Positions 16,099 through 36,059 of a DNA stretch of 37,453 bases are shown in pieces; position 1 is the stretch's first letter, and each line of letters opens with the position of its first letter. Under the pieces are notes generated by a model. The model was not told where the DNA came from. It ran no database searches and worked only from the letters and a program-made list of their open reading frames with translations. This DNA comes from Porphyrobacter sp. GTDB lineage: Bacteria; Pseudomonadota; Alphaproteobacteria; Sphingomonadales; Sphingomonadaceae. A program made the translations under genes and the position numbers. The DNA lies in contig JACESM010000005.1 in the NCBI GenBank assembly GCA_013911835.1, forward strand, positions 1 to 37,453, written 5' to 3'.

Positions 16099-16563
16099 AT
16101 GCCTCAATGTGGCGAAACTTGTGCGCACCCCTATCCTGCCCCGGCCTTTGTCCGGGCGCTGAAAGTGCCCTGCGCGCGGTATGGTGAGTGGCTTGAGAAG
16201 CAGGCGCAAAGCTGCCGCCTGCGCGACAAGCGTGAGGGCAAGCCGGGGATCGAGGAATACCGCAAGCGCATTCACCAGGCAGTGCTCGCCAGTGAAGGCC
16301 GCGACTTCTACACCGGCGAACCGCTCGAATGGAACCGGCTCAACCACGTGCTGCCGCTGAGCGGCGGGCGCAAGCGTCATTTGCAGCGCGGGCACTATCC
16401 CAGCGTCGATCATTACACCGGCACCAGTTGCCTCGACTTTCGTCTGTGCAGCGCGCTGGTGAACCATGCCAAGGGTCCGCTGTCGCACCAGCAGTTCCTC
16501 GAGCTGTGCCAGAAGGTCGTCAGCCAGCGACAACGGCGTGAGGCGGCAAAGCGCGCGGCCTAG
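16099..16563 (+). CDS. HNH-like endonuclease-fold protein next to the origin
   Basis: A 154-residue protein. It has VPCARYGEWLEKQAQSCRLR, then EGRDFYTGEPLEW, and the late motif PSVDHYTGTSCLDFRLCSAL followed by VNHAKGPLSHQQFLELC. The VDH ... N ... AK pattern is that of a family of short HNH proteins seen in sphingomonads. The classical second metal-binding His is not obvious. It faces repA convergently and their stops overlap. It might act on plasmid DNA or be an orphan homing-type enzyme; the function is unknown. Confidence 0.65.
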   Translation: MPQCGETCAHPYPAPAFVRALKVPCARYGEWLEKQAQSCRLRDKREGKPGIEEYRKRIHQAVLASEGRDFYTGEPLEWNRLNHVLPLSGGRKRHLQRGHYPSVDHYTGTSCLDFRLCSALVNHAKGPLSHQQFLELCQKVVSQRQRREAAKRAA

Positions 16564-17864
16564 CCCCGCAGTTCGTGGCGGTGCTTGTCGTGGTGCCGCT
16601 TCACCCATCCGATGAAGGCCTTTTGCCAGTTGGCGGGGGTGCGTTCGGGGGATGCGGCGACCCAGCGTTCGAACTCGGCGTGGAGCGCGTAGAGATCCCA
16701 GCCCGGGCACTTTTCACGCAGGTGTTCGATGGTCTCGTCGGTCATGAAGCCGCGGGTGGCCTTGTCGCTCAGCCCAGCGACAGCCGAGCGGACCAGGCTG
16801 CGCGCGTCGAAGGTCTCGGCATCCGGAGTAGTGCCAGCCTCGGCGCGACGGCCTGCGCGCGCTGCCGGCTGTCCTTCTTCGCGGGACTGCGCTTCGCTCC
16901 GTTTCCCCGAGGAAACGCGCTCTACGGCCTCTGAGGCGGCCTGGGCGCCCTCCCCTGCTGCCTTGTCGCCTACGCCACCCTTTGCCGCAATCGCCGCCTT
17001 TGGCAGTCCCTCTTCCGCGCCATCCTTGCCGTCCACCCGCGTCATGCGGAGCATGGGCTCGCCATCACGCTGGGCGGTCTCCACCGCCAGAGCATAGCCC
17101 GGCAGCGCGTTCTTCTCGGCCAATTTGAGCATCTCGAACTTGAAGCGGCGGTACTGCCCCTCTGCGCCCGATTTTTCGAACAGCACGGGCATGGAAATGG
17201 CAAAGCCGGCTTCCCCGGCCCCGCCAGCATGTTTGCGCGCCACGCGGTAAAGCCAGCGTTCGCGCCCGCCGGTAATGTCGAAATAGGCGCGATCGATGCT
17301 GAGCACCCCGCCCTGCATCATCACGCCTTCCCAGAACCAGTTGGAGAGTTCGAGCGTCATCCCGCGGCTGCGTTCAGTCTTCTCATCGACCAGCTGGGTC
17401 CAGCCATCGAGCCAGCTGAAGGTCGCCTCGCGCCGGTTCTCTGCGCGGATATTGGTCTTGATGGTGGTCGAGACGAGCCGGTCCAGCGCCTGCCCCAGCA
17501 GCTCGTAGGCGCGCCCGGTTGTCGGACGCCCTATGGCGCGCAGCAGGTCGTAGGGCATGATGTGCAGCTTGCGCGGCACATCGTTGACCCCGCGCCGCGC
17601 CATGTCGGCGAGCTGGCTGGCGCAATAAATCAGGATGTCCGCATCCCAGATCGTCGCCATGCCGTAATCGGGGTTGGCGCTGACGTGGACCCACAGCTTG
17701 CCATCGGGGCTGGTATAGTCGATCGGCTTGACCCGCTTGGATTTGGCCAGGCTGAAGAAGGGCCGTTCCATCATCTCGCGCTGATCGCGCAGGGGCAGGT
17801 CCGCCAGATAGGGCAGGAACAGGTCGAACTGTTCGGACACGGACTGGCGGCGAGCGCGGCTCAC
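16560..17864 (-). CDS. repA: Plasmid replication initiator, RPA family
   Basis: About 434 residues from a GTG at 17864; an upstream ATG at 17951 would translate through the two palindromes and is less likely, and a GTG at 17839 is another option. The RPA core reads LPLRDQREMMERPFFSLAKS, then RVKPIDYTSPDGKLWVHV, YGMATIWDADILIYCASQL and LHIMPYDLLRAIGRPTTGRA, with winged-helix elements up to about residue 250. A linker rich in Ala, Gly and Glu precedes a C-terminal helical part (GWDLYALHAEFERWV). It binds the iterons to start replication. It follows parA and parB on the same strand, the common parA-parB-repA order of sphingomonad plasmids. Confidence 0.9.
   Translation of the reverse strand: MSRARRQSVSEQFDLFLPYLADLPLRDQREMMERPFFSLAKSKRVKPIDYTSPDGKLWVHVSANPDYGMATIWDADILIYCASQLADMARRGVNDVPRKLHIMPYDLLRAIGRPTTGRAYELLGQALDRLVSTTIKTNIRAENRREATFSWLDGWTQLVDEKTERSRGMTLELSNWFWEGVMMQGGVLSIDRAYFDITGGRERWLYRVARKHAGGAGEAGFAISMPVLFEKSGAEGQYRRFKFEMLKLAEKNALPGYALAVETAQRDGEPMLRMTRVDGKDGAEEGLPKAAIAAKGGVGDKAAGEGAQAASEAVERVSSGKRSEAQSREEGQPAARAGRRAEAGTTPDAETFDARSLVRSAVAGLSDKATRGFMTDETIEHLREKCPGWDLYALHAEFERWVAASPERTPANWQKAFIGWVKRHHDKHRHELRG
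16901..16916. promoter_or_regulatory. ParB-site-like palindrome inside repA
   Basis: GTTTCC-CCGA-GGAAAC lies within the linker-coding part of repA. It is related to the two palindromes upstream of repA and is preceded by the same words (ACTGCGCTtCGCTCC). It may be a third binding site or a copied segment. Confidence 0.4.
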
Positions 17865-17898
17865 GACCGCTTCGCTTCGCGGTACTGCGCTGCGCTCC

Positions 17899-17949
17899 GT
17901 TTCCCTGGGGAAACATCTTCTGTGGGCCGCGACGTTTCCCCAGGGAAAC
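17899..17949. promoter_or_regulatory. Paired ParB-site-like palindromes upstream of repA
   Basis: GTTTCCCTGGGGAAAC (17899-17914) and GTTTCCCCAGGGAAAC (17934-17949) are exact reverse complements of each other, each with 7-bp arms, 35 bases apart. They lie between parB and repA. This is what a partition centromere or a repA operator looks like. Binding by the neighbouring ParB is the simplest reading. Confidence 0.55.
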
Positions 17950-17979
17950 AATTCAGGGCAGGGGAGGGCACCTGGGCAG

Positions 17980-24300: not shown

Positions 24301-24773
24301 ACGGCATCCGCTTTGTGGCGATGGACCACACTGGCTGCGGCCAGCGCTGCGATGCCGAGGTGGCGCGCGCGAAGGCGCTGGCCGAGGGGTTGATCGGGAC
24401 CGCATTTACCGACCGCCAGGGCAGGCCGGGCAAGATCGGGTGGCAGAACATCCTGATCGTCGCGCCCTACAACATGCAGGTGAACGCGCTCGCCGCTGCG
24501 CTGCCGTCAGCTGCTCGGGTGGGCACGGTGGACAAGTTCCAGGGGCAGGAGGCCGAGGTGGTGATCGTGTCGCTGGCGACCTCCACCCCCGACGACCTGC
24601 CGCGCCACGTGGAATTCTTCTATTCGAAGAACCGCATCAACGTCGCCATCAGCCGCGCCCGCACGCTGGCGCTGGTGCTGGCCAACCCGAAGCTGCTGGA
24701 ACTGGACGCAAAAAGCGTCGATCACCTGCGGCTCGTGAACACACTCGCCTGGGTGGCAGAGGAGGGGAAGTGA
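21333..24773 (+). CDS. RecB-like nuclease / RNase H-like exonuclease / SF1 helicase fusion (TM0106 family)
   Basis: A 1146-residue protein in three parts. The N-terminal RecB-type nuclease (1-300) has GFADFLIR, then EPVDTKLA as the D...D-x-K site and a Cys cluster CGACPLCPWRDHC (Cys211, 214, 217, 223), likely an iron-sulphur site. A DEDD/RNase H-like exonuclease (about 315-510) has LFFDLEGDP (Asp321, Glu323) and DYNKVDCENTEALRDWL. An SF1 helicase (about 740-1146) has Walker A GPPGTGKT (768-775), LFVDEAGQ, LVGDQMQLAQPIQGA, TVDKFQGQEAEVVIVSL and NVAISRART. It should unwind and degrade DNA. Its stop overlaps the mcrB start as GTGA, so it belongs to the McrBC operon and may process cut invader DNA. 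Confidence 0.92.
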   Translation: MRQYDSHILYAPSDLVRYLGCAHATALDLAKLRDPEAAPEQAEDDAMGELVQQAGLAHEEDYRAQLAGEGGLVEIPTHGSLETRARLTREAMVGGAQAIFQAAFLQPPWSGFADFLIRVEEPSDLGVWSYEPVDTKLARSAKASHVVQLGLYARMIAAIQGRSPRRVHVQLGNGQRESLRLVEFAKVLDSATTRFLAFVEGVAPGTAPEPCGACPLCPWRDHCSEVWETEDHLSRVCGLGKPQAEKLRAAGIATVADLAALPEDARVPRIAPATLAKLRAQAQLQQARWQGGAPVVEQLPPEEGRGFANLPEPDPADLFFDLEGDPLEEGGLDYLWGVHYRDGSRPEFRFHWGHNHADERAAFESTLDWMAAHLEANPGAHVYHYAPYEITALRRLSTLHASREEMLDNLLRQRRFVDLYAVLRQAIRTSEDNLSLKTMEVFFAKARQGEVTKADQSVVEYKSWQASGDQTILDGILDYNKVDCENTEALRDWLVELRMDDLPWRPVGPVTAVPDEKAEARAEAEERSARLLAAIAEGPLPESEEGRALVGHLTQFHRRADKPAFWAMFDRCEREPDELAEDHECIGGIVPDPDGDGVWQRPEKRSTISSYRFPPQETKLREGSTVLHAPSLAKVGTIVALDCEAGTVEIKRGNAAKGMWPAEGSLIPEPTVPNQILVAAVRRVALTWAGMNEDQWLYGETDPDGLETWSCGLTDEEPYRALLDLIERRPPRLRDWSGGALVREGESLVEAATLRCLAMDGTTLFIQGPPGTGKTHTSAHVICSLIAAGKRVGVSSNSHKAINNLLAKVEEVAEETGLVFSGVKKCSRGNDEQRLNGRIITDVENASDVHEHAPDLVGGTAWLFADENFDQEFDYLFVDEAGQVSLGHLLAMGSAARNIVLVGDQMQLAQPIQGAHPGESGLSALDYLLQGEATVAPDRGILLDTSWRMHPSICEFISDAVYDGRLQAHPDCANQRLHLKPGHDPALAENGIRFVAMDHTGCGQRCDAEVARAKALAEGLIGTAFTDRQGRPGKIGWQNILIVAPYNMQVNALAAALPSAARVGTVDKFQGQEAEVVIVSLATSTPDDLPRHVEFFYSKNRINVAISRARTLALVLANPKLLELDAKSVDHLRLVNTLAWVAEEGK

Positions 24774-27571
24774 GGGATACCGAATACCGGGCCTGGCTCG
24801 AAACGCAGGAATTGGCCAAGCGCAGCATCGGGACCAAGATGTCCGACGCCCGGCGGGTCGATCAGGAGCACGGTGATCTCGACGCCCATTTCGAGGAGGA
24901 CCGGATGGTGTCTCTGCTCGACACATTCGCCTACTCCAAGGCTGACGAAGCTGCGGGGCGCGCCAACCCTACCAAGCTGAACATCGATGGGAATCTCTAC
25001 AACAATCTGGCGTCATATCGTGCCGCCCTGACCACCTACCGCAGCTTTTGCGAGGCGAGGGTTCATCCAGAAGGCCGCCTCTCAGGCCTCGACCGCCAAG
25101 CGATTCTGGACGCCATTGCCGCATGCGAAGCTGCCGGATCGGTGCAGGCCTTTATCGGCCAGATGGACGACCGCGGCGCTCCGCACAAATTCTGGCTGCT
25201 GCACGAGGGGAAGCGTTACCCGAGCAAGGCCATTGTCCATTGGGCGATGCGCGAACGCGGTATTGACGCGACCGCCGGTGGCAGCCTGTGCAAATCGACA
25301 CTTGACGACCTTGGCTTCGCAGTCGTCGACTGGCCCGAGCTGCAACGGGCGCAGGAGGAGTTCTTGCGCCAGATGCCCGACTTCAGCGATTTTCGCGCTA
25401 ACCGAGGCACCTATTGGGATGTCGAGCGGCGTTACAAGAATGCCCTGATCGAACAGGCCCGCACCATTGCCGCTGGCGACGGCGATGATCGCGCGGCGGG
25501 CGAGGGCATCTACCGCATCCTTATTGGCGGGCAGCAGGGCGTCCCCCTGAACTGGCGGACCTTGCCCGAGGTGCAGGCTACCGAACCGGTGCTGCGCGAT
25601 CGCTTCTACGCCGCGCTCGGCGCGCTGGCACGCAGCGATGCCCCACTGGAGGAAGCCATACCCGCCGCTGCACGCGAGCTGGAGGCACTGCGCGATGCCG
25701 GCATAACGGGCCTGCGGCGCGGCGAAATCCTGTCGATCCCGATCACCGTCTGGGCCACGCTTCACCCCGAGGAGGCGAGCTGGTTCAAGATCGCCAGGAT
25801 CGAGGAAATGGGCAAGCGCTACTTCGGTCGCAACCTCTTCCCCGCCAGCGATTTCCGCTTCCGAGAGCAGGACCTCGGCGAATGGCTGCAACTGATGCGC
25901 GCCCTGTTCGGCCTGCTGGAAACAGAAGTCGGATGGCACCCGCAGGACCTGTTCGACGTGCAGGGCTTCGTCTGGGTCGCGCTCGGCGGAAACGACAGCG
26001 CCGAAGACGATGGGAACATTGATGAGGCAGCAGAGATGACAATCTCTCTGGATGACGGCCCGTACTGGTTTCTTGGCGCGGCATTCGGGCGAACAGAAGA
26101 TCAGCTGGAGCGCTTCCTCGCCGAGGGTATCTGGGAGATAAGCGAACCGAGTGACCGGCATCGCGCGCAGGTGTTGAGTATGCAGCCCGGTCAGCACATC
26201 GCGATCAAATCGACCTATACAAGAAAGCAAGGCCTCCCCTTTGATAACATGGGGCGTGTTGTCTCAGTCATGGGGATCAAGGCGACAGGTACGATCACGC
26301 AAAACCCTGGCACGGGCGAAACTGTTTCGGTTGCGTGGGACCCGCCCTTCGAGGCACGCGAATGGTATCACTACACCTACCAGCCAACCGTTTGGGAAGT
26401 TTACCCTACCAAGGAGATGGCACGGCGTCTGATCGCTTTCGCTTTTCATGGCGCAGCGCAGGACTACGACTGGTTTCACGCCAATCTGAAGAACTGGAGC
26501 CAGTTACCGGATGAGCCGGAAGAGGAAGTGGACGACGAACTTGCGGCAGACGCGCGCCAAAGCGATCCGCAGAATATCATCCTCTATGGCCCACCTGGCA
26601 CTGGCAAAACCTACCGTACAATGGCGGATGCAGTCAGGCATTGTCTGGAACTGGACAAGAAAGATCCGTTGCTTTGCGATGCTGCCCGTCGCGAGGAGTT
26701 GCGGGGGGAATATGAAGCCTTGCGGACCAACGGTCAGATCGCATTCGTCACCTTCCACCAGAATTTTGGCTATGAGGACTTTGTCGAGGGCTTGCGCCCC
26801 AAGACCATCGAAGGCTCTGCCGGCTTCGTGTTGAAAGAAGAGCCGGGGATTTTCCGCAATATGGCTGAGAAGGCTGAAGGCAGTCCGGAACAGCATGTGC
26901 TAGTCATTGATGAGATTAATCGGGCGAATGTCTCGAAGGTATTCGGCGAACTCATTACCCTGATCGAGCCGGACAAGCGCCTCGGCAAGGAAGAAGCCTT
27001 GCGCCTTCGCCTACCATATTCGCGCAAAATGTTCGGAGTCCCCGCAAACCTCCACATCATCGGCACCATGAACACGGCCGACCGCTCTATCGCCTTGCTC
27101 GATACCGCCCTGCGCCGACGGTTCCGGTTCGAGGAGATGGCGCCCGATACCTCGGTGCCAGCCTTCCAGCAGGCAGAAACCGACACCGGCCTGCCGCTCG
27201 CCAAGGTGCTCGACAGCATGAACCGGCGGATCGAGTATCTCGTCGATCGCGACCACCGGATCGGCCACGCCTTCTTCATCGGCTGCGACAACAAGCGCCA
27301 GGTCGACGCCGTCATGCGCGACAAGGTCATCCCGCTGTTGCAGGAATACTTCTTCGATGACTGGAGCCGCCTCGCCGCGGTGCTGGGGGAAAAGGACAAG
27401 GGCGGTAACTTCCTTTCCTGCGAGACCATCGAGGATCCGCTGGGCGAGGGCGATCCGATGAAATCGTGGCGGGTTCGCAAGGAGTTTGACGAGGGCGCTT
27501 ACCACCGCCTCGTGTCGGGCAAGGCCGCTCCCACGCCGGATGCCGCCGATCCGGAGGCTGACCCGGCGTGA
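24770..27571 (+). CDS. mcrB: McrB-type GTPase subunit of a modification-dependent restriction system
   Basis: A 933-residue protein from a GTG at 24770 in a GTGA overlap with the helicase gene, with GAGGAGGGG just upstream. The C-terminal AAA+ domain has GPPGTGKT (607-614), VTFHQNFGYEDFVEGLRPK, LVIDEINRANVSKVFGEL and the McrB signature MNTADRS (767-773), then DTALRRRFRF. The N-terminal 600 residues are much longer than in E. coli McrB and look modular: a helical segment 1-100, FWLLHEGKRYPSKAIVHWAM near 140 as in some ScoMcrA-like readers, and an EVE/PUA-like stretch GPYWFLGAAFGRTEDQLERF with GIWEIS near 430-500. These parts probably recognise modified DNA. Confidence 0.92.
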   Translation: MRDTEYRAWLETQELAKRSIGTKMSDARRVDQEHGDLDAHFEEDRMVSLLDTFAYSKADEAAGRANPTKLNIDGNLYNNLASYRAALTTYRSFCEARVHPEGRLSGLDRQAILDAIAACEAAGSVQAFIGQMDDRGAPHKFWLLHEGKRYPSKAIVHWAMRERGIDATAGGSLCKSTLDDLGFAVVDWPELQRAQEEFLRQMPDFSDFRANRGTYWDVERRYKNALIEQARTIAAGDGDDRAAGEGIYRILIGGQQGVPLNWRTLPEVQATEPVLRDRFYAALGALARSDAPLEEAIPAAARELEALRDAGITGLRRGEILSIPITVWATLHPEEASWFKIARIEEMGKRYFGRNLFPASDFRFREQDLGEWLQLMRALFGLLETEVGWHPQDLFDVQGFVWVALGGNDSAEDDGNIDEAAEMTISLDDGPYWFLGAAFGRTEDQLERFLAEGIWEISEPSDRHRAQVLSMQPGQHIAIKSTYTRKQGLPFDNMGRVVSVMGIKATGTITQNPGTGETVSVAWDPPFEAREWYHYTYQPTVWEVYPTKEMARRLIAFAFHGAAQDYDWFHANLKNWSQLPDEPEEEVDDELAADARQSDPQNIILYGPPGTGKTYRTMADAVRHCLELDKKDPLLCDAARREELRGEYEALRTNGQIAFVTFHQNFGYEDFVEGLRPKTIEGSAGFVLKEEPGIFRNMAEKAEGSPEQHVLVIDEINRANVSKVFGELITLIEPDKRLGKEEALRLRLPYSRKMFGVPANLHIIGTMNTADRSIALLDTALRRRFRFEEMAPDTSVPAFQQAETDTGLPLAKVLDSMNRRIEYLVDRDHRIGHAFFIGCDNKRQVDAVMRDKVIPLLQEYFFDDWSRLAAVLGEKDKGGNFLSCETIEDPLGEGDPMKSWRVRKEFDEGAYHRLVSGKAAPTPDAADPEADPA

Positions 27572-28887
27572 GCCATTTCACCGTCCGCGAATGGGGCCAT
27601 GTGAAGCTGGGGGAGGGCGGGTTTGCGCGCGCGCAGGCCGATGCCCTGCACGCCGCCGCCTGCGGCCACCCGCTTGCCCATCGCGACGGGACCAACGTGC
27701 TCGTCTATCGCCGTGACCGGATCGTGGCGCGGCAGATGGTCGGCATGGTGGCGGCCAAGGGGTGCAGCCTCGAAATCCTGCCCAAGGTCGATCCCGACGC
27801 AGCCGAAGACGAGCAAGCCGACTCAGTCCGCCGCCGCCTGGTGCGGATGCTCGATGTCGCGCTCGGGCTCGATCTGGACCTCGGCGGCGAGGCGGCGATC
27901 CACCGGCAAAGCAATACCCTGCTCGAAGTGCTGATCCGCGCCTTTGCCGACAAGCTGCTGGCCGAGGTGCGGCGCGGCCTGCCGCGGCTCTACCGCCAGC
28001 ACGAGGACGATCTGCCCGCGCTGCGCGGGCGGCTCGACGTGACCCGCCAGTTCACCCGCAACGCTGTGCGGCCTGACCGGCTCGCCTGCCGTTTCGACCA
28101 GCTCGACGCCGATACGCCGCTGATGCGGGTGATGGCGGCGGCGGTGGTCTACCTCGGGAAGCACGCGCGCTCGCCCGCGACCCGCCGCATGCTCGACGAA
28201 CTGCGCCACGTGCTGGCCGACATCCCGCTCGTGCCTGTCAATCGCCTGCCGTGGAAGGAGGTGCGGATCGACCGTACCAATCGCCGCTGGGAAAGCCTGT
28301 TCCGCCTCGCGCAACTGCTGCTGCGGCGTGACTGGCAAGCCACCCACCATGCGGCGCGCTCGCCCGAGGGCGTGACCCTGCTGTTCCCGATGAACGACCT
28401 GTTTGAAAAATATGTCGCGGCACTGCTGCGCAAAGCGCTGGCGGGCAGCGAGGTGGAGGTCGTGGACCAGGGCGGCCACCGTGCCTGCCTGGGCATGTTT
28501 ACCGGAGAGCACCTCGAAACCGGCGACACCTTCCGCACTAGACCCGACATCATGCTGCGCCGGGGCGGCGACATTCTCGCCATCATCGATACCAAGTGGA
28601 AGAAGCTCGCCCGCGATCTGCTCGACCGCAAGCACGGGGTCAGCCAGGCCGATGTCTACCAGCTGATGGCCTATGCCCGGCTTTATCCGACGCGCGAGTT
28701 GATGCTGCTCTACCCCGGCGTTCCGGGCGAACCCTGCGGCGAGCGGGCGCCGTTCGGCATGGCCGGAGGCAGCGAGCGCCTCGCCGTGGCCACCATCGAC
28801 ACTGCGCAGGCAGAAGGCGAAGTCGTGCGGCGTCTGGCAAGACTTTGCGAACGATTCCACACCGTATCGGATGTTCCTGTGACTTAA
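27568..28887 (+). CDS. mcrC: McrC-type nuclease subunit
   Basis: A 439-residue protein from a GTG at 27568 overlapping the mcrB stop. The N-terminal beta-rich part starts FTVREWGHVKL and has LEILPKVDP. The middle is helical with RGRLDVTRQF. The C-terminal PD-(D/E)XK nuclease has RPDIMLRRGGDILAIIDTKW, with Asp327 and the variant Asp341-x-Lys343, then SQADVYQLMAYA. McrC joins the McrB hexamer, stimulates GTP hydrolysis and cuts modified DNA. All landmarks are intact. Confidence 0.93.
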   Translation: MSHFTVREWGHVKLGEGGFARAQADALHAAACGHPLAHRDGTNVLVYRRDRIVARQMVGMVAAKGCSLEILPKVDPDAAEDEQADSVRRRLVRMLDVALGLDLDLGGEAAIHRQSNTLLEVLIRAFADKLLAEVRRGLPRLYRQHEDDLPALRGRLDVTRQFTRNAVRPDRLACRFDQLDADTPLMRVMAAAVVYLGKHARSPATRRMLDELRHVLADIPLVPVNRLPWKEVRIDRTNRRWESLFRLAQLLLRRDWQATHHAARSPEGVTLLFPMNDLFEKYVAALLRKALAGSEVEVVDQGGHRACLGMFTGEHLETGDTFRTRPDIMLRRGGDILAIIDTKWKKLARDLLDRKHGVSQADVYQLMAYARLYPTRELMLLYPGVPGEPCGERAPFGMAGGSERLAVATIDTAQAEGEVVRRLARLCERFHTVSDVPVT

Positions 28888-28919
28888 GGCTTTTCTTGCA
28901 CCCGACAAACGTGCACCGT

Positions 28920-28937
28920 GCGTCAGTTCCGGTCGCA
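28920..28937. promoter_or_regulatory. Copy 1 of an 18-bp element upstream of the WYL gene
   Basis: GCGTCAGTTCCGGTCGCA lies 28 bases before the WYL start. Its reverse complement, with one change, recurs at 29948-29965 just before the next gene. A dyad TGCACC / GGTGCA (28912-28945 area) brackets this copy. Confidence 0.5.
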
Positions 28938-28965
28938 ATGGGTGCACGGTTTGGGGGAGGGCGCA

Positions 28966-29988
28966 GTGGCCAGGATGGCAAAGCTGGACCGGCTGCTGAC
29001 GCTGGTTAACGCCCTCCACGATACCTCCGACGGATTGACGCTCGACGAGATGGCCGAGGCGATCGGGGCCGACCGTCGCACCGCGGAACGGCTGCGCGAC
29101 GTGATCCGCCTGCACTTCGACCTCGAGGAACTGCCCGACGACCGCCGCAAGCGCTTCCGCATCGTTGGCAGCCTGCGCCGCGTGTTCACCCGCCCCAACG
29201 CCGCCGAGATTGCCGCCGTGCAGGAAGCCGCCGCTGCCGCGCGCCGTTCGGGCGCTGCACAGGCTCCGCTGCTGGAAAGCTTGGCCGAGAAGGTGAAGGG
29301 CGCGCTCGATGATCGCGAGAAGCGCCGCCTCGATCCCGATCTCGAACCGCTGGCGCGGCTGCAACGCCACCACGTCCCCGCTGGCCCCGCGCTCACCGTT
29401 TCGCACGAGGTTCTGGCGCAGGTGCAGGGTGCGATCATGGCGGGCGCCTGCGTCGAATTTGATTACCTGCGCGACGGCGCGAGCGAGGCCAGCTGGCGGC
29501 GCGTGATCCCGGTGGGGCTGATCCACGGGCCGGTCACCTACCTGATCGGCCAGCTGCCCGGCAGCGAGCGCGAACCGGTGCCCTACCGCCTCGACCGGAT
29601 GAGCGCAGTGCGCATCAGCAACCAGCCCGGTTGCGCGGCGGAAGACTGGGACCTCGACGCGTGGATGAGCCGCAGCTTCGGGATCTGGCGCGAAGAGGGG
29701 CATGATATCGTCTTACGCGTTTGTCCCGAAGCCGCGCCGCGCGCCCGCGCATGGCGCTTTCATCCGGCGCAGCAAATGGAGGAGGGCGAGGGCGGCGAGA
29801 TGTTCGTCCGCTTCCACTCCGGCGGCCTGCGCGAACTTGCCGAGCACCTGTTCACATGGGGCGGGGCTGTTGCCATCGTCGCACCGGAGGAACTGCGCGA
29901 GGTGATGCAGGAAAGGCTGACAGCGGTGCAGGGGGCATTGGGGGACATGCGACCGGAATTGACGCAAACGCAGAGTAGGCCAGGTTGA
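28966..29988 (+). CDS. WYL-domain transcriptional regulator
   Basis: About 340 residues from a GTG at 28966 (VARMAKLDRLL), with GGGGGAGG 7 bases upstream; ATG 28975 is also possible. The N-terminal winged helix-turn-helix is KLDRLLTLVNALHDTSDGLT, then DEMAEAIGADRRTAERLRDV. The WYL domain is CVEFDYLRDGASEASWRRVI, then PVGLIHGPVTYLIGQLPG and the C-terminal WCX-like half with LFTWGGAVAIVAPEELRE. WYL regulators often control phage-defence islands and sense nucleic acid ligands. It sits after mcrC and overlaps the next gene by one base, and the 18-bp elements on both sides suggest autoregulation. Confidence 0.9.
   Translation: MARMAKLDRLLTLVNALHDTSDGLTLDEMAEAIGADRRTAERLRDVIRLHFDLEELPDDRRKRFRIVGSLRRVFTRPNAAEIAAVQEAAAAARRSGAAQAPLLESLAEKVKGALDDREKRRLDPDLEPLARLQRHHVPAGPALTVSHEVLAQVQGAIMAGACVEFDYLRDGASEASWRRVIPVGLIHGPVTYLIGQLPGSEREPVPYRLDRMSAVRISNQPGCAAEDWDLDAWMSRSFGIWREEGHDIVLRVCPEAAPRARAWRFHPAQQMEEGEGGEMFVRFHSGGLRELAEHLFTWGGAVAIVAPEELREVMQERLTAVQGALGDMRPELTQTQSRPG
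29948..29965. promoter_or_regulatory. Copy 2 of the 18-bp element, inverted
   Basis: TGCGACCGGAATTGACGC is the reverse complement of copy 1 at 28920 with 17 of 18 bases kept. It lies in the last codons of the WYL gene, 22 bases before the start of the PD-(D/E)XK gene. Each copy thus stands the same short distance ahead of a start codon. Confidence 0.5.
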
Positions 29989-30785
29989 TGGATGTCAATA
30001 TTGCTCTTGATCGTGCAAGACTAGCCGCATTTTTTTATGCCTGCAGGGAGCGGAAGCACTCCGCAAATCACACTGCAAATCTGCCGCCCTTCCTGAATGC
30101 GTTGCGGACTTCGGGTTTGGGTAATCTGCCGGACACTGCGGGTAAGCGCGATGTTTTTGCAAAACCTGATCAGGATTTGCTGGCGCAGTTCTTCGGCGCA
30201 TCCATGCCAATGTTCGAGACGTTGAATAACCGTTTCCGGCACAATCCTTGGCAAATGGCGGGGATTGGCCGCTATGAAACGCGGAATTCCGCCGTTCTCG
30301 GTCAGTTATTCGACAGCACCGTCTCGCCTGTTGCCGGGCCGAGATTCCTCGCCAGCTACTTCGATTGCGTGAGAACGTCCAACGACACTCGTTCGGCACT
30401 CCCCACTCTGGCAGACCTTGAATCGGGGTATCGTATTGGAATTGAACACTGCCCGACTGGTAGTCAGTCCGAGCGTGTTGACCTCACCGTTGAGGGTAAC
30501 GATTTCGTCATCGGTATCGAGATCAAGATCGACGCAGGCGAGGGGCCGGAGCAGCTTGAGCGATACAAGCAGGTGATCAGACATCGTGCAGAAGCGCGTC
30601 AATGCAACCTCAACAGTGTGATCTATCTTTCTCCTCGACCAACCGCGACGTTGGACGTCCTGCAATCTAGTTGGCGTCATATCTCACGAGCCGCTGATAA
30701 GACTTCTCAAGAGGTAGCTGCGACCAATTCGCGGGTTGCCTGGCTCCTGGCTTGTTTCGCCGATCATGTCCGTAATTTCTACTGA
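29988..30785 (+). CDS. PD-(D/E)XK nuclease-superfamily protein
   Basis: A 265-residue protein whose ATG at 29988 overlaps the WYL stop by one base (TGATG). The nuclease core is RIGIEHCPTGSQSERVDLTV, then DFVIGIEIKIDAGEGPEQLE, giving D-x(n)-E-x-K (ERVDLTV; EIKID), followed by QLERYKQVIRH, as in the PDDEXK_4-like group. The N-terminal half is helical (FFYACRERKHSANHTA). Sequence composition is less G+C-rich than mcrBC. It is the first of two genes after the regulator and may be the effector of a small separate system. Confidence 0.8.
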   Translation: MDVNIALDRARLAAFFYACRERKHSANHTANLPPFLNALRTSGLGNLPDTAGKRDVFAKPDQDLLAQFFGASMPMFETLNNRFRHNPWQMAGIGRYETRNSAVLGQLFDSTVSPVAGPRFLASYFDCVRTSNDTRSALPTLADLESGYRIGIEHCPTGSQSERVDLTVEGNDFVIGIEIKIDAGEGPEQLERYKQVIRHRAEARQCNLNSVIYLSPRPTATLDVLQSSWRHISRAADKTSQEVAATNSRVAWLLACFADHVRNFY

Positions 30786-30794
30786 AAGAGCACG

Positions 30795-31400
30795 ATGGAA
30801 AACGATAACCAATTGGCGGGCCTTATCATTCGCAACATTGCGGAACTGGAGGGCGCGCTGAAATATCTGGAAGAACGGGTAACCCCGCGCCTCGCCGAGG
30901 CAATATTTGAAATTGTCGAGAGCAGTGCCGGAGCCTCAGACTGGTATTTTTCCGATTCATCCGACCCTGGAGGCTGGTTCTGTCTCAAAGATTGGCTGAT
31001 CGCCGGACAATCCAAAGCCGACGCCAATATGTGGCTCCAGATCGAGACCCCGGGTGATGATCTTTCGGAGACCTGGGAGGGGTCATTTGCAGGCGGGCTG
31101 GCGGCGGAGCACACGGCGGCGCTAGTTGTGCGCTATGCCCGTGTTGGAAAGCGACAGTGGGCAGAATTGAGGGCCGGTCTTCCCGATGCAATGGATAGCA
31201 TTCGTGCGGCCGGATTTGTGGTCGATGGAGACCAGATCTACTTTTCCTTGCCGCTTGACCGCGAAGCGCTGGCCGAAGCATTCGAGCAGGGAGATATTTC
31301 CACCGCGCTTGGCAGGATCGAAGAGATGGCGCTTGCGCTGGCAAGGGCGATACCTGCACTCAATGCGATCCATCAGGCGCTGACACGTATGATTGATTGA
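30795..31400 (+). CDS. Uncharacterised partner of the PD-(D/E)XK gene
   Basis: A 201-residue protein starting 9 bases after the nuclease gene, with AAAGAGC just upstream of the ATG. It is acidic. Helical ends (LAGLIIRNIAELEGALKYLE and LARAIPALNAIHQALTRM) frame a strand-rich centre with WYFSDSSDPGGWFCLKDWL and MWLQIETPGDDLSETWEGSF. No family is recognised. The tight link to the nuclease suggests an inhibitor, sensor or targeting subunit. This is inference only. Confidence 0.72.
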   Translation: MENDNQLAGLIIRNIAELEGALKYLEERVTPRLAEAIFEIVESSAGASDWYFSDSSDPGGWFCLKDWLIAGQSKADANMWLQIETPGDDLSETWEGSFAGGLAAEHTAALVVRYARVGKRQWAELRAGLPDAMDSIRAAGFVVDGDQIYFSLPLDREALAEAFEQGDISTALGRIEEMALALARAIPALNAIHQALTRMID

Positions 31401-31486
31401 CCCATGAAAAAGCCATGCACCACCAAAGCCCCGGAAGATCTCGGTCGGAGTCGTCCAATTCATGGAGAAAACGTGAAGGAGCCGCA

Positions 31487-31511
31487 ATAAAAACGGGGGC
31501 CGTAGCCCCCG
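31487..31511 (-). terminator. Rho-independent terminator of the tracrRNA
   Basis: Read on the reverse strand, a perfect 7-bp GC stem (CGGGGGC/GCCCCCG) is closed by UACG, a UNCG-class very stable tetraloop, and followed by TTTTTATT. In the other direction no T-run follows, so the terminator works on the reverse strand. It ends the tracrRNA rather than the operon at 29988-31400. Confidence 0.85.
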
Positions 31512-31566
31512 CCTTATTTGGTGCAGTCAAGCTGCTTGTTCACAACCAGACCTGCGATTTCTGAAG
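31487..31566 (-). ncRNA. tracrRNA, short form
   Basis: The anti-repeat at 31568-31538 can pair with the first 26 nt of the crRNA repeat (GUUGCAGCUGGACC...), using G-U pairs and two single-base bulges, with TTCAGAAATCGC as the perfect core. It is followed by a nexus hairpin GCAG-CUUGA-CUGC (31535-31523), AAAUAAGGC and the terminator. The transcript would be about 80 nt. A consensus -35 TTGACA (31600-31595) stands at the right distance for a start near 31565. This orientation fits an array transcribed on the reverse strand. The 5' end is an estimate. Confidence 0.82.
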
Positions 31567-31571
31567 ACGAG

Positions 31572-31600
31572 AAATTCGTTCATTTTGGCCCTGTTGTCAA
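31572..31600 (-). promoter_or_regulatory. Candidate promoter of short tracrRNA
   Basis: TTGACA at 31600-31595, then 17 bases, then a weak -10 GAATTT (31577-31572). The start would fall about 31565, at the 5' edge of the anti-repeat. The -10 is poor, so this is a suggestion from position. Confidence 0.4.
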
Positions 31601-31660
31601 CAGCGTTTCAGAAACCGTGGTCCGGCCGCAACATCTCATATCCATCATGAGTTCAGGCTA

Positions 31661-31691
31661 TGCATATCGCGAGTGGTTGGCTGAATGTCAA
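31661..31691 (-). promoter_or_regulatory. Candidate promoter of long tracrRNA
   Basis: TTGACA at 31691-31686. The possible -10 words are GATATG (31668-31663, 17-base spacer) or TATGCA (31666-31661). Either would start transcription near 31655, leaving a guide of about 22-25 nt before the pseudo-repeat, the usual Cas9 guide length. Confidence 0.45.
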
Positions 31692-31693
31692 AT

Positions 31694-31717
31694 ATGGATA
31701 TGAGATAGGAATTGACT
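31694..31717 (+). promoter_or_regulatory. Seed-matched target of the built-in guide, in the cas9 promoter region
   Basis: ATGGATATGAGAT (31694-31706) equals the PAM-proximal 13 nt of the guide; the next guide bases do not match, so binding without cutting is expected. The 3' flank AGGAATTG (31707-31714) would be the PAM. A Cas9 bound here would cover about 31683-31714: the -35 of the long tracr promoter (31686-31691) and the edge of a TTGACT word (31712-31717) that may be the cas9 -35 box. Confidence 0.55.
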
Positions 31718-31742
31718 TCAAGCCTTGTTTGCCCTGAAAAGG

Positions 31743-31826
31743 GCCAGCCCGAGAGAAGGATATCCCAAGGGCTGGCTCCCCGGAGGGTGGTTGTCGTTTC
31801 CGTTTGACCACAGGGCGGCAACCACC
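31743..31826 (+). promoter_or_regulatory. Two strong hairpins in the cas9 leader
   Basis: GCCAGCCC (31743-31750) pairs with GGGCTGGC (31769-31776). GGTGGTTGTCG (31786-31796) pairs with CGGCAACCACC (31816-31826), with one G-U. Both lie between the promoter region and the cas9 ATG. No T-run follows, so they are not simple terminators. They may control cas9 mRNA stability or translation. Confidence 0.55.
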
Positions 31827-31855
31827 TTTGGTGGATCAGGATAGAGGATTCTGCA

Positions 31856-34800
31856 ATGACCACAAGACTTGGTCTCGACATCGGCACCAACTCGATCGGG
31901 TGGTGTTTGTTTGACGGCGACACGATCCGCGATATCGGCGTGCGCATCTTTTCCGATGGCCGCGATCCCAAGTCCGGGGCCAGTCTGGCGGTGGACCGGC
32001 GCGATGCGCGGGCGATGCGGCGGCGGCGGGATCGCTACCTTGGCCGGCGCTCGGCACTTGTCGAAGTGCTGGTTACGCACGGGCTGCTGCCCGCGGACAA
32101 GTCTGCTGGCCAAAAGCTGCACGGTGAAGACCCCTATGCGCTGCGTGTTCGCGCACTCGATGAGAAGCTGACCCCGCACCAGATCGGGCGGGCGCTGTTC
32201 CACCTGAACCAGCGGCGCGGTTTCAAGTCCAACCGCAAGGCGGACCGTGTTTCCAAAGACAATGAGGACGGCAAGATCGCCAGCGGCACCAAGGCACTGG
32301 ATCAAGCCATCGCCGAATCCGGCGCGCGCACGCTGGGCGAGTACCTGCATCGGCAGGATGTGAAACGCGTACGGATGCGGCCTGATGCCGATGGCTATGA
32401 TTTCTACCCCGACCGCAGGCATTACGAATATGAATTTGAGCAAATCTGGGCCGCGCAGGCACCACATCACCCTTCGCTGCTGACGGACGAGGCGAAAGCC
32501 GCGATCCACCGAGTGATCTTCTTCCAGCGCCCGCTGAAGGCGCAGGTGGTAGGCAAGTGCAGCTTCGCCGGGTGGTACGGCATTCCCGAAGACGAAAAGC
32601 GCCTGCCCAAGGCGCATCCGCTGTTCCAGCAGCGCCGGCTTTATGAAGAGGTCAATCAGCTGGAGGTTGTTTCCGCCGGTGCCCCCTCGCGCAAGTTGAC
32701 AAAGGACGAGCGCGACAAACTGATCCTGAAATTGCAGGACAAGAAGAAGGTCACCTTCAAGACACTCGGCGGGATCATCAAGCTGCAGGAAGGGGAACGC
32801 TTCAACAAGGAAAGCGAGAACCGCAAGGATCTGATCGGCGACGAGGTCCGCGCCGAGATGATGCACAAGGACCGCTTTGGCCCGGACTGGACGACCTTCT
32901 CCGCCGCGAAGCAGTCGGAGATCATCGACCGGCTGCTGGAAGAGGAAAACACTGAAAAGCTGCTCTCCTGGCTGCAATCGGAACACGGTGTTAATCGCGA
33001 GACTGCGGAAAATATCGCCAATGCCCACTTGCCCGACGGGCATGGCCGCTTCGGCCTGACTGCCACCACCGCGCTGCTCGAACAGCTCAAGGCCGATGTC
33101 ATTACGTATGCCCAAGCAGCGGAGCGAGCAGGATACCATCATAGCGATCATCGCACTGGCGAGTGCCTTGATGAACTGCCCTATTACGGCGAAATCCTCG
33201 CCCGCGAAATCGCGCCGGGCAAGGAAGATTATGGTGACGAGTTAGAACGCCAGTGGGGCAAGATCACCAACCCTACCGTGCATATCGGCCTGAACCAGCT
33301 GCGCAGGTTGGTGAACGCGATTGTGCGTAAATACGGTCGACCGGAATATATCTATGTCGAATTGGCGCGCGAGCTCAAGCTCAACGAAAAGCAGAAGGCC
33401 GAGCATACCCGGCGCATCAAGCAGACCACCGATGCAGCGGCTGAACGCAGCAGGAAGCTGGAAGAGATCGGCCAGCGCGATTCAGGCGGCAACCGCATGC
33501 TGCTGCGCATCTGGGAACAGCTCAATCCCGCCAATCCGCTTGATCGCAAGTGTCCTTACTGCGGGGAAGGCATCGGCATAGAAGCGCTTATGAACGGATC
33601 GGCCGATATCGATCACATCATCCCCTACTCGAAGTGCCTGGATGACAGTGTGGGCAACAAGATCGTCAGCCACACCCATTGTAACCGGCAAAAGGGCGAC
33701 AAGACTCCGTGGGAACGGTGGGGCGAAACCGACCGCTGGCCGATCATTCAGGATCAGGTGGCGCGGCTGCACAAGTCCAAACAGTGGCGCTTTGGCCCCG
33801 ATGCGATGGAGCGCATAGAGCGTGACGGCGGGTTCATCGCCCGGCAGCTAACCGATACGCAATATCTCTCACGCATCGCGGGCAAATATCTCTCCAGCCT
33901 CTACACCCCGGACGAGGGGCGCCGGGTCTATGCCGTTACCGGGCGGATGACCGCCATGCTGCGCCGCCTGTGGGGCCTCAATGATATCCTGCCCGACCAT
34001 AACTGGGTGGAGAATGAGCATTCCAATGCGCCCAAGAACCGGCTCGACCATCGCCATCATGCGATTGACGCTGCGGTGGTCGGTGCAACTGATGCGGGAA
34101 TGATCCAGAAAATTGCAACCGCAGCAGGGCGCGCAGAAGAACAGGATCTGGACCGTCAGTTTGTCGACCTGCCAAAACCGTGGGAGGGTTTCCGTGAGGA
34201 TCTGCGCGAAAAACTCTATGCCACTACCGTCAGCTTCAAGCCCGATCACGGGCGCAACGGCAAACTGCGCAAGGATCGCGATGTCACTTCAGGCCGGTTG
34301 CACAATGATACCGCCTATGGCCTTACCGGCCGAACCAACGCCAAGGGCGTACCGATCGTCGTCACGCGCAAACCATTGCTCAGCCTCAAACCTGGCGATC
34401 TGACCGACCCGGAGCGGATGCCTGATCACGATCTGCAAGAGGCGCTTTACTCAGCCACCCGCGGCACCAGCGGCAAGGAGTTCGAGAAGGCTTTGCGCGA
34501 ATTCGCCAGACGCGACGGCCCCTTCAAGGATATCCGACGCGTCCGCCTGACCGAACCGCTCAACGTCATCCCGATCAGCGACAAGGGTGGCCGTGCCTAC
34601 AAGGCGGTGAAAGGCGATGCCAATGCCCGCTTTGACGTCTGGCGCCTGCCAGATGGCAAATGGGTGACGAAGTGGAAGGATCGCGAGGACAATGAACAGT
34701 CCAGCATCATCTCCATGTTCGATGCCCATCAGCGCGATTTTGCCGAGGCGCGCCCGCATCCCGCAGCGAAAAAGGTGCTCAGCCTGCGGCAGAACGATCT

Positions 34801-35041
34801 GCTGGCGGTGGAACGCGATGGCGGTGAGCGGGAGATCATGCGGGTGGTGAAGTTCGGCGGGAACGGCCAGGTATTTCTCGCCGCGCATAACGAAGCCGGA
34901 CCATTGAAGGCACGCGATTCGGACGGTGGCGATCCGTTCAAATATGTAAGTGCGATGGCTGGGTCTCTGAAAAAGATAAAAGCCCGACAAATCCGTATCG
35001 ACGAACTCGGCCATATTCATGATCCCGGCCCACGTGATTGA
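31856..35041 (+). CDS. cas9: Cas9 endonuclease, type II-C
   Basis: A 1061-residue protein, the compact size of type II-C. RuvC-I is RLGLDIGTNSIGW (Asp8). The arginine bridge helix is RRDARAMRRRRDRYLGRRSA (48-67). RuvC-II is YIYVELARELK (Glu502). A single CPYC pair precedes HNH, which is SADIDHIIPYSKCLDD (His587) with HCNRQKGDKTPWE. RuvC-III is RLDHRHHAIDAAVV (His735, Asp738). The C-terminal part (about 800-1061) is the wedge/PAM-interacting region. All catalytic residues are present. The start has AGAGGA 9-10 bases upstream. It cuts DNA with crRNA and tracrRNA; the upstream layout suggests it also represses its own promoter. Confidence 0.97.
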   Translation: MTTRLGLDIGTNSIGWCLFDGDTIRDIGVRIFSDGRDPKSGASLAVDRRDARAMRRRRDRYLGRRSALVEVLVTHGLLPADKSAGQKLHGEDPYALRVRALDEKLTPHQIGRALFHLNQRRGFKSNRKADRVSKDNEDGKIASGTKALDQAIAESGARTLGEYLHRQDVKRVRMRPDADGYDFYPDRRHYEYEFEQIWAAQAPHHPSLLTDEAKAAIHRVIFFQRPLKAQVVGKCSFAGWYGIPEDEKRLPKAHPLFQQRRLYEEVNQLEVVSAGAPSRKLTKDERDKLILKLQDKKKVTFKTLGGIIKLQEGERFNKESENRKDLIGDEVRAEMMHKDRFGPDWTTFSAAKQSEIIDRLLEEENTEKLLSWLQSEHGVNRETAENIANAHLPDGHGRFGLTATTALLEQLKADVITYAQAAERAGYHHSDHRTGECLDELPYYGEILAREIAPGKEDYGDELERQWGKITNPTVHIGLNQLRRLVNAIVRKYGRPEYIYVELARELKLNEKQKAEHTRRIKQTTDAAAERSRKLEEIGQRDSGGNRMLLRIWEQLNPANPLDRKCPYCGEGIGIEALMNGSADIDHIIPYSKCLDDSVGNKIVSHTHCNRQKGDKTPWERWGETDRWPIIQDQVARLHKSKQWRFGPDAMERIERDGGFIARQLTDTQYLSRIAGKYLSSLYTPDEGRRVYAVTGRMTAMLRRLWGLNDILPDHNWVENEHSNAPKNRLDHRHHAIDAAVVGATDAGMIQKIATAAGRAEEQDLDRQFVDLPKPWEGFREDLREKLYATTVSFKPDHGRNGKLRKDRDVTSGRLHNDTAYGLTGRTNAKGVPIVVTRKPLLSLKPGDLTDPERMPDHDLQEALYSATRGTSGKEFEKALREFARRDGPFKDIRRVRLTEPLNVIPISDKGGRAYKAVKGDANARFDVWRLPDGKWVTKWKDREDNEQSSIISMFDAHQRDFAEARPHPAAKKVLSLRQNDLLAVERDGGEREIMRVVKFGGNGQVFLAAHNEAGPLKARDSDGGDPFKYVSAMAGSLKKIKARQIRIDELGHIHDPGPRD

Positions 35042-35120: not shown

Positions 35121-36059
35121 ATGGATCGGATTGTCGATATCGCGACGGACAAGGTGCATTTGTCTGCCCATCGCGGCCTGTTGCTCGTCACGCTCGATGG
35201 CGAGGAAATGGGCCGAGTGGCGCTCGACGATATCGCCGCCGTCATCGTGCATGCCCACGGCGTAACCTGGACCACCAATCTCGTCGTCAAGCTGGCAGAA
35301 CGCGGCGCAATGATGGTGCTGTGCGCCGCTAATCATGGGCCCGTCGCCATGATGGTTCCGCTTGAAGGACACCACGCCCAGAATGCCCGGTTTCGTGCGC
35401 AATGGGATACCGGCCTTCCGTTTCGAAAACGCGCATGGCAGGCCGTAGTGCAGGCGAAGATCCGTAATCAGGGAAGTCTGCTTTCCGCACTCGGCCAGGA
35501 GGAGGGACAGGCCCTCCTGCTGATGGCCGAAAGGGTCAAATCCGGCGACACCGCCAATGCAGAGGCTCAGGCAGCACGCCGATACTGGCCCGCGCTGATG
35601 GGCAGGGATTTCCGGCGGGATCGGGATGCAGACGGCGCCAATGCTCTGCTCAATTATGGCTACACCGTCATGCGCGCTGCCGTGGCGCGTGCGGTTATCG
35701 CCGCCGGGCTTCATCCCACGATCGGGCTCCATCACGCCAACCGGTTGAATGCCTTTGCCCTGGCTGACGATCTGGTCGAGCCTTTTCGCCCGCTGGTCGA
35801 TGCGGCCGTTCACCGGATGGTGGAAGGGGACGTGGACGAGTTGGATGGTCCGGCCAAGGCCCGGTTGGCATCGCTGCTGTCGGCCGATCTGGACCTGCAA
35901 GGTTCGACGACGCCCGCCAGCGTGGCAATCCAGCGCCTGGCCCAATCACTCGCGGCCAGTTTTGAACAGGGGCGGGTGGAGCTGGCGTTGTTCCAGACTC
36001 CGGCGCCGCTCGCCTGGAACGCCATCGCTCGCCATGCCCCTGACGGCGAAATGCGGTGA
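35121..36059 (+). CDS. cas1: Cas1 integrase of the CRISPR adaptation complex
   Basis: A 312-residue protein of the type II Cas1 branch. The N-terminal beta domain is MDRIVDIATDKVHLSAHRGL. The helical catalytic domain has NAEAQAARRYWPALMG (Glu148), GLHHANRLNAFALADDLVEP (His204/205, Asp216-Glu220). These acids and His bind the metal used to join new spacers. It begins 79 bases after cas9 and overlaps cas2 by 4 bases. No csn2 or cas4 is found, so the locus is II-C. Confidence 0.97.
   Translation: MDRIVDIATDKVHLSAHRGLLLVTLDGEEMGRVALDDIAAVIVHAHGVTWTTNLVVKLAERGAMMVLCAANHGPVAMMVPLEGHHAQNARFRAQWDTGLPFRKRAWQAVVQAKIRNQGSLLSALGQEEGQALLLMAERVKSGDTANAEAQAARRYWPALMGRDFRRDRDADGANALLNYGYTVMRAAVARAVIAAGLHPTIGLHHANRLNAFALADDLVEPFRPLVDAAVHRMVEGDVDELDGPAKARLASLLSADLDLQGSTTPASVAIQRLAQSLAASFEQGRVELALFQTPAPLAWNAIARHAPDGEMR

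What the first reader, a model, noticed from the sequence alone, without database searches (positions are those of the whole stretch)
31487..31720. A natural single-guide tracrRNA that may make Cas9 repress its own locus in a type II-C system
Seen: on the reverse strand, in order, are a -35 TTGACA (31691-31686), 24 nt (31656-31633), a degenerate crRNA-sense repeat (31632-31603), a loop, the anti-repeat (31568-31538), a nexus hairpin and a terminator. The 13 nt directly before the pseudo-repeat (ATGGATATGAGAT) recur exactly at 31694-31706, between the long-tracr promoter and cas9. Beyond 13 nt the match ends, as expected for binding without cleavage. A given 13-mer turning up by chance in either orientation within this 200-base region has odds of about 1 in 10^5. 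Known: S. pyogenes (II-A) tracr-L uses a short guide match in this way to repress the cas operon. Inferred: the same control, perhaps evolved separately, in a compact plasmid-borne II-C system, with one bound Cas9 covering both the tracr-L promoter and the cas9 promoter edge.
Basis: partly seen in the sequence, partly recalled or inferred. Interest (0 to 1): 0.95.

Follow-up and report, generated by a model that had tools for sequence, protein, structure and literature searches.

The report
Self-repressing Cas9 guide RNA, type II-C
Just upstream of cas9 on a plasmid-like piece of bacterial DNA, the tracrRNA gene has a predicted long form that would fold into a natural single guide RNA whose last 13 letters also stand at the predicted cas9 promoter; many related loci keep such a match with different letters each time, so Cas9 likely turns down its own gene, a kind of control shown before for a Streptococcus Cas9.

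Summary
Guide, degenerate repeat, anti-repeat, nexus and terminator lie on the minus strand upstream of a type II-C cas9 and fold as one single guide (z -5.1). The 13 nt before the pseudo-repeat recur once in the window, at 31694-31706, followed by AGG. In 26 of 36 the 11 nt abutting it recur upstream of cas9 with at most one mismatch (16 exactly), against 13 of 1260 with swapped guides. The 26 eleven-mers all differ, matching falls to chance beyond 11 nt, and PAM position 2 is G in 25 of 26: guide and target co-vary. EHCas9, a II-C Cas9 with alphaproteobacterial kin, has a measured NGG PAM. A DNA-level repressor guide is the best reading; transcription, binding and repression are untested. 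The module is patchy: the closest fetched relative (87%) lacks it, and 10 of 36 candidates have no such match. The principle is known (S. pyogenes tracr-L, II-A); the II-C form, both target orientations and a version with a hairpin-bearing leader look new.

The parts
31686..31691 (-). -35 (TTGACA) of the predicted long-tracrRNA (tracr-L) promoter; weak -10 candidates at 31668-31663 (GATATG) or 31666-31661 (TATGCA)
   Evidence: prediction only
31633..31656 (-). predicted 24-nt guide of tracr-L; its 3' 13 nt (31645-31633, ATGGATATGAGAT) match the target
31603..31632 (-). pseudo-repeat (degenerate copy of the crRNA-sense CRISPR repeat; 2 mismatches in its first 14 nt)
   Evidence: paired to the anti-repeat in the fold
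31595..31600 (-). TTGACA, predicted -35 of the short tracrRNA promoter
   Evidence: prediction only
31537..31565 (-). anti-repeat (paired region)
   Evidence: fold
31523..31535 (-). nexus hairpin
   Evidence: fold
31487..31515 (-). terminator hairpin with T run
31694..31706 (+). 13-nt target (11 nt the likely functional part, by comparison with relatives)
31707..31714 (+). PAM side, AGGAATTG (NGG)
   Evidence: G at position 2 in 25 of 26 targets
31712..31717 (+). TTGACT, predicted -35 of cas9, overlapping the PAM side
   Evidence: prediction only
31856..35041 (+). cas9, 1061 aa
   Evidence: TIGR01865 E 9.1e-184
35121..36059 (+). cas1 (type II)
   Evidence: TIGR03639
36056..36403 (+). cas2
   Evidence: TIGR01573
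36479..36910 (-). CRISPR array, 7 repeats of 36 nt and 6 spacers of 30 nt; crRNA sense inferred to be the minus strand

Best explanation
[quoted passage not shown] Shown: the parts, the computed fold, the match, and in relatives the co-variation of guide and target, the 11-nt limit and the NGG-like PAM side. Inferred: that transcription starts near 31656, that Cas9 binds this RNA and site, that 11-13 nt allow binding but not cleavage (as reported for S. pyogenes), and that binding blocks RNA polymerase, because the protospacer covers the tracr-L -35 and the PAM side overlaps the cas9 -35. The result would be a negative feedback loop that keeps Cas9 low until crRNAs or an inhibitor draw Cas9 away.
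For: Single-guide fold, z -5.07. Of 156 distinct loci, 36 have candidate pseudo-repeats; exact anchored match of at least 10 nt in 17 of 36 against 2 of 1260 swaps; at most 1 mismatch in 11 nt in 26 of 36 against 13 of 1260 swaps and 51 of 1336 random positions in the same regions. Identity by position in the 16 cases with 10 or more exact nt: 16/16 at positions 1-10, 15/16 at 11, then 46 of 169 (27%, chance) at 12-22. Anchors 3 nt or more off the pseudo-repeat boundary give 1-3 of 36. PAM side of the 26: G at position 2 in 25, G at 3 in 20, purine at 5 in 21, T at 6 in 20; GG background 7%. Targets 13 on each strand, 26 different 11-mers, mean Hamming distance 7.4. In the '+' orientation the RNA cannot pair with cas9 mRNA. 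Own pseudo-repeat with own anti-repeat -19.1 against -14.7 kcal/mol swapped; mean rank 7.0 of 28, 14.5 expected. EHCas9, a type II-C Cas9 whose closest homologues are alphaproteobacterial, has a measured NGG PAM (PMC10281378, passages). The site is unique in the held genome.
Against: No transcript, binding or expression data. 10 of 36 candidates have no anchored match with at most one mismatch (L009, L011, L014, L021, L040, L058, L065, L071, L093, L158): L021, L058 and L071 look like false pseudo-repeats by eye, but L011, L014, L065 and L093 may be real counter-examples; L040 has only 8 nt and L009 an 18-nt match that misses the two bases next to the boundary and has no NGG. 54 of 156 loci have the anti-repeat within 150 nt of cas9 and no pseudo-repeat, among them the closest fetched relative (L002, 87%); the next (L003, 85%) has a match with one indel and one mismatch. 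In 10 of the 28 loci folded, fewer than 9 bases of the pseudo-repeat pair with the anti-repeat in the minimum-energy fold. Apart from the two TTGACA the window's promoter elements are weak. The 6 window spacers gave no protospacer in viral contigs, so the PAM of this Cas9 is unmeasured. How close EHCas9 is to this Cas9 was not computed.
Confidence: 0.83

Rival explanations
1. The match is kept by mutation, not function: guide and target are inverted repeats and are copied into each other by template switching.
For: L009 (18 nt) and L003 (20 of 21 guide positions identical, plus 1 indel) show long copies that look recent. Random positions in these regions also have partners more often than swaps do (51 of 1336 against 13 of 1260).
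Against: 13 of 26 targets are direct, not inverted, repeats; the match starts at the pseudo-repeat boundary, ends at 11 nt and is flanked by NGG, which copying alone does not predict. Copying may still be how new guide/target pairs arise.
Confidence: 0.05
2. The long RNA is an antisense RNA acting on cas9 mRNA rather than a DNA-targeting guide.
For: 13 of 26 targets are on the tracr strand and could pair with a cas9 5' leader.
Against: In the window and 12 other loci the guide has the sense of the cas9 strand and cannot pair with cas9 mRNA; an NGG beside the match has no role in RNA pairing.
Confidence: 0.03
3. The main controlled promoter is that of tracr-L, and cas9 is affected little: a self-limiting guide.
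For: The predicted tracr-L -35 lies inside the window's protospacer; in several loci with tracr-strand targets the PAM-side TTGA box faces away from cas9.
Against: In 8 of the 13 loci with '+' targets listed the PAM side runs into ATTGAC, ATTGAT, GTTGAC or ATTGTT facing cas9.
Confidence: 0.07
4. The pseudo-repeat and guide are a decayed CRISPR unit without function.
For: Patchy distribution, 17 changes on the tree; 10 of 36 without such a match.
Against: 26 of 36 co-varying matches; own duplex better than swapped.
Confidence: 0.02

Closest known systems
tracr-L of Streptococcus pyogenes, type II-A (Workman et al. 2021: not held, recalled; passages about it in PMC8616872, PMC8730458 and PMC11417352)
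   Same: Long tracrRNA that acts as a natural single guide; short match beside a PAM at the cas promoter (11 nt in PMC8616872; 9 bp in PMC8730458); a short tracrRNA from a second promoter
   Different: Type II-C Cas9, relatives mostly of Alphaproteobacteria; targets on either strand; relatives with 133-239 nt between target and guide end carrying conserved hairpins; experiment exists only for II-A
sgRNA-like RNA predicted in Listeria monocytogenes II-A (Guzina et al. 2018, PMC6199352; abstract and sections 15, 16, 17, 20 read)
   Same: Two repeat-like segments that pair within one RNA upstream of cas genes
   Different: II-A; no cas-promoter target proposed in the sections read; its II-C cases there are separate scaRNA and tracrRNA
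CreR guides (types I-B, I-E and V-A in PMC13131331; type I and V-A in PMC12737573; passages)
   Same: Effector turned on its own cas promoter by partial complementarity
   Different: crRNA-like RNA, no tracrRNA, other effectors
scaRNA of Francisella novicida (II-B; passage in PMC8730458) and Neisseria meningitidis (II-C; PMC13431127, passages)
   Same: Small RNA tied to a type II locus, with repeat-like or sgRNA-like parts
   Different: Separate RNA that controls other genes; the meningococcal one acts on mRNA

Membership tests
Type II-C CRISPR-Cas | cas9-cas1-cas2 without csn2 or cas4 | tested here: met
   Cas9, Cas1 (type II model), Cas2 in a row; the three ORFs upstream (28918-31400) match no NCBIfam model; about 75 bases between cas2 and the array. 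The definition is recalled.
Type II-C CRISPR-Cas | array crRNA sense opposite to the cas genes | tested here: met
   repeat reads GTTGCAGCTGG... on the minus strand, and a copy of that sense pairs with the anti-repeat; direction inferred from pairing, no RNA data
tracr-L natural single guide | guide, pseudo-repeat, anti-repeat, nexus and terminator that fold as a single guide | tested here: met
   (z -5.07); that they are one transcript is inferred
tracr-L natural single guide | about 11 nt of the guide match the cas promoter region beside a PAM | tested here: met
   13 nt and AGG in the window; 11 nt and NGG-like in relatives
tracr-L natural single guide | match conserved by co-variation in related loci | tested here: met
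   26 of 36 candidates; 10 of 36 not
tracr-L natural single guide | long and short transcripts from two promoters | not testable with these tools
   two TTGACA boxes at 31691-31686 and 31600-31595; no RNA data
tracr-L natural single guide | Cas9-dependent repression of the cas genes without cleavage | not testable with these tools
   needs reporter and binding assays
tracr-L natural single guide | type II-A system, as described in the papers read (a matter of record, not of mechanism) | tested here: not met
   II-C here; PMC8616872 says tracr-L is not found in other subtypes. So: works like tracr-L, not a II-A tracr-L.

The most novel reading that the evidence does not exclude
Type II-C systems of Alphaproteobacteria carry a widespread, rewritable self-repressor: guide and promoter target are replaced together again and again under an 11-nt limit, with new pairs born by copying promoter DNA next to the pseudo-repeat. 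A second form has a long structured leader with an unknown GUCCACA-loop hairpin that could gate the guide in response to a signal.
Probability: 0.4. Interest if true: 0.9.

Novelty: new variant of a known kind. Interest (0 to 1): 0.77.

Why it matters
Type II-C is the subtype of many compact genome-editing Cas9s (recalled), and how its expression is held in check is little known. A built-in guide that limits Cas9 would help explain how such systems move on plasmids without harming new hosts, and would give a natural 11-nt rule for binding without cutting in II-C Cas9s. It also makes the origin of tracr-L testable, because presence and absence alternate among close relatives.

Tried and rejected
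PAM from spacers: 6 of 6 window spacers (19-20 nt PAM-proximal parts) had no exact match in viral contigs, so the PAM rests on the co-varying targets and on EHCas9. Rfam: no match at 31000-32500 (E up to 1) nor in 9 relatives at gathering score. tRNA origin of the leader: ARAGORN on 12 loci found one tRNA-Thr, in L035 at 5282-5357, outside the leader (not followed up). Literature: ten searches; I saw the listings (20 of 76, 20 of 33 and 20 of 75 papers) and opened twelve papers in part; none of what I saw describes a tracr-L in type II-C. Preprints and most subscription journals are not in the library, Workman et al. 2021 among them. Antisense action and pure mutational copying were considered and set aside (see rivals). 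A II-A locus as positive control was not fetched. No protein structure was predicted, since Cas9 membership was not in doubt; one search of solved structures matched Cas9 chains only and was not used further.

Filters: searches used looser or other cut-offs. L045 and L077, candidates, fell out (stricter anti-repeat score or repeat start): L045 has a 10-of-11 match beside AGGAATTGAT, L077 7 exact nt beside AGGCATAATA. L005 was also missed by the filter.

Full report
What is there. On the minus strand upstream of cas9 (31856-35041, 1061 aa, TIGR01865; cas1 and cas2 follow) the sequence reads guide, pseudo-repeat, a stretch with a second TTGACA, anti-repeat, nexus, terminator. The 170-nt RNA folds with the pseudo-repeat on the anti-repeat at -68.7 kcal/mol, z -5.07, none of 200 shuffles as low. 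The 13 nt ahead of the pseudo-repeat recur only at 31694-31706 in the window, followed by AGGAATTG. The contig is plasmid-like: RepA-type initiator (16560-17951), ParA, ParB, TrwC relaxase, with HipA and McrBC genes.

Test by relatives. 177 loci had cas9's start and at least 300 nt upstream; 156 were distinct. Classes: 36 with a candidate pseudo-repeat (at most 4 mismatches in 14) between cas9 and the anti-repeat on the tracr strand; 54 with the anti-repeat under 150 nt from cas9 and no pseudo-repeat; 21 with it further away and none found; 45 with no anti-repeat found, of which 36 are under 44% identical to the window's Cas9. The last group was not examined further.

Result. The 11 nt abutting the pseudo-repeat recur in the upstream region (700 nt where available) exactly in 16 of 36 and with at most one mismatch in 26 of 36. 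Guides swapped between loci give 2 and 13 of 1260; random positions in the same regions give 9 and 51 of 1336. In the 16 cases identity is complete for 10 nt, 15 of 16 at the 11th, then 46 of 169 over positions 12-22, the chance level. So the functional length is likely 11, and the window's 13 nt fit 11 plus two chance matches. Shifting the anchor shows that the match ends at the pseudo-repeat boundary, or one base into it (11 of 36 exact at offset +1), where the repeat's first G equals the first PAM-side base. On the PAM side G stands at position 2 in 25 of 26 and at 3 in 20 of 26; GG background is 7%. With NGG required as well, 19 of 36 loci match against 2 of 1260 swaps. The 26 eleven-mers are all different (mean Hamming distance 7.4, smallest 2). 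Guide and target have therefore changed together many times. One close pair shows a single step: L068 and L005 differ at position 9 in both guide and target; at position 3 both changed in L005 but no longer match.

Against. 10 of 36 candidates show no such match: L009, L011, L014, L021, L040, L058, L065, L071, L093, L158. L040 has 8 exact nt beside AGGTGTTGAC; L009 has 18 nt that stop two bases short of the boundary, with no NGG; L021, L058 and L071 look like false pseudo-repeats by eye. Cut-offs were set after a first look. In 10 of 28 folded loci the minimum-energy fold does not form the duplex (fewer than 9 bases paired), though own pairs are stronger than swapped ones (-19.1 against -14.7 kcal/mol). 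On the tree (94 of the 156 Cas9s: rows without an anti-repeat, under 43% identity, with more than 2 stops or under 900 aa were left out; L003 and L096 were labelled pseudo-repeat only) the guide-and-target state, 20 rows, needs 17 changes, about as many as shuffled labels (mean 18.5; 108 of 500 as low). Such scatter means frequent gain, loss or transfer; it does not tell one origin from several. The window's two nearest fetched relatives are one without the module (L002) and one with an imperfect copy (L003). Protein hits up to 95% identical exist whose loci I could not fetch.

How it likely works. In the window the protospacer (31687-31706 for 20 nt) covers the predicted tracr-L -35 and the PAM side overlaps TTGACT, the predicted cas9 -35; bound Cas9 would shut both. 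The guide RNA has the sense of the cas9 strand here, so pairing with cas9 mRNA is impossible; 13 of 26 loci are like this and 13 the other way. Short matches that bind without cutting are reported for S. pyogenes tracr-L (11 nt, PMC8616872 passage; PMC8730458 says 9 bp); for II-C this is inferred. NGG is the measured PAM of EHCas9, a II-C Cas9 whose closest homologues are alphaproteobacterial (PMC10281378, passages).

Two architectures. In 8 of 14 loci examined, the window among them, a TTG-box lies 55-59 nt before the guide's end, which would put the start about where a 20-24-nt guide begins (the box test was loose, TTGA, TTGC or TTGT; 5 of 14 had none at 45-66 nt and one had it at 64). In a leadered form 133-239 nt lie between target and guide end (16 loci listed). 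In 8 of these 16, and in L065 and L144, a hairpin with the loop GUCCACA stands 50-73 nt before the guide end. Of 16 GTCCACA occurrences on the tracr strand I aligned 13 and left out 3 (L028, L057, L149) that lie outside a recognised tracr-L; three of the 13 (L021, L069, L101) have no assigned guide either. Over 8 positions the 13 form 80.8% standard pairs (shuffles 50.9%; slid at most 51.0%), with 34 double-sided changes against 13.2, none of 500 shuffles as high; the count of pairs with any double-sided change (7 against 6.2) is not above chance. A longer hairpin with a loop such as TCCAAAC or TTCAAAC stands further upstream in several. No Rfam family matches. Its function is unknown.

What is known. 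The papers seen in part describe tracr-L for type II-A only; PMC8616872 states that it is not found in other subtypes. Guzina et al. 2018 predicted an sgRNA-like RNA in Listeria II-A. CreR guides are reported to do similar work in types I-B, I-E and V-A (PMC13131331). Ten searches showed me no II-C case, but the library lacks preprints and most subscription journals. I therefore call this a new variant of a known kind.

Noticed in passing
L003, L009, L035, L050, L065, L089, L096, L100, L102, L144, tracr strand, 50-73 nt before the guide end: Hairpin with loop GUCCACA and strongly co-varying stem in a long leader of tracr-L, plus a longer hairpin with a TYCAAAC-like loop upstream in several; no Rfam match.
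   Followed up: partly
L009 and L003, upstream of cas9: Long near-copies (18 nt; 20 of 21 guide positions identical plus one indel) between guide and the cas9 upstream region, as if the guide had been copied from there recently.
   Followed up: partly
L108 11038-11057, minus strand: A spacer in one of this locus's two arrays shares AAAATTGTAGTTAGTT with the end of the tracr-L guide and the start of the pseudo-repeat of the same locus, as if aimed at a relative of the tracr-L gene.
   Followed up: partly
window 31741-31776: The predicted cas9 5' leader holds an inverted repeat (GGGCCAGCCC / GGGCTGGC); some compact relatives share CTGGTGG in the same place (by eye).
   Followed up: no
L015/L083 and L021, upstream of cas9: Two strong anti-repeat-like stretches (scores 22 and 19; about 100 nt apart in L015/L083, about 300 nt in L021), perhaps a duplicated tracrRNA.
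   Followed up: no
window 24440-30785: AAA and McrBC genes, a WYL-domain regulator and a PD-(D/E)XK nuclease beside the CRISPR system on the plasmid-like contig: a small defence cluster.
   Followed up: no
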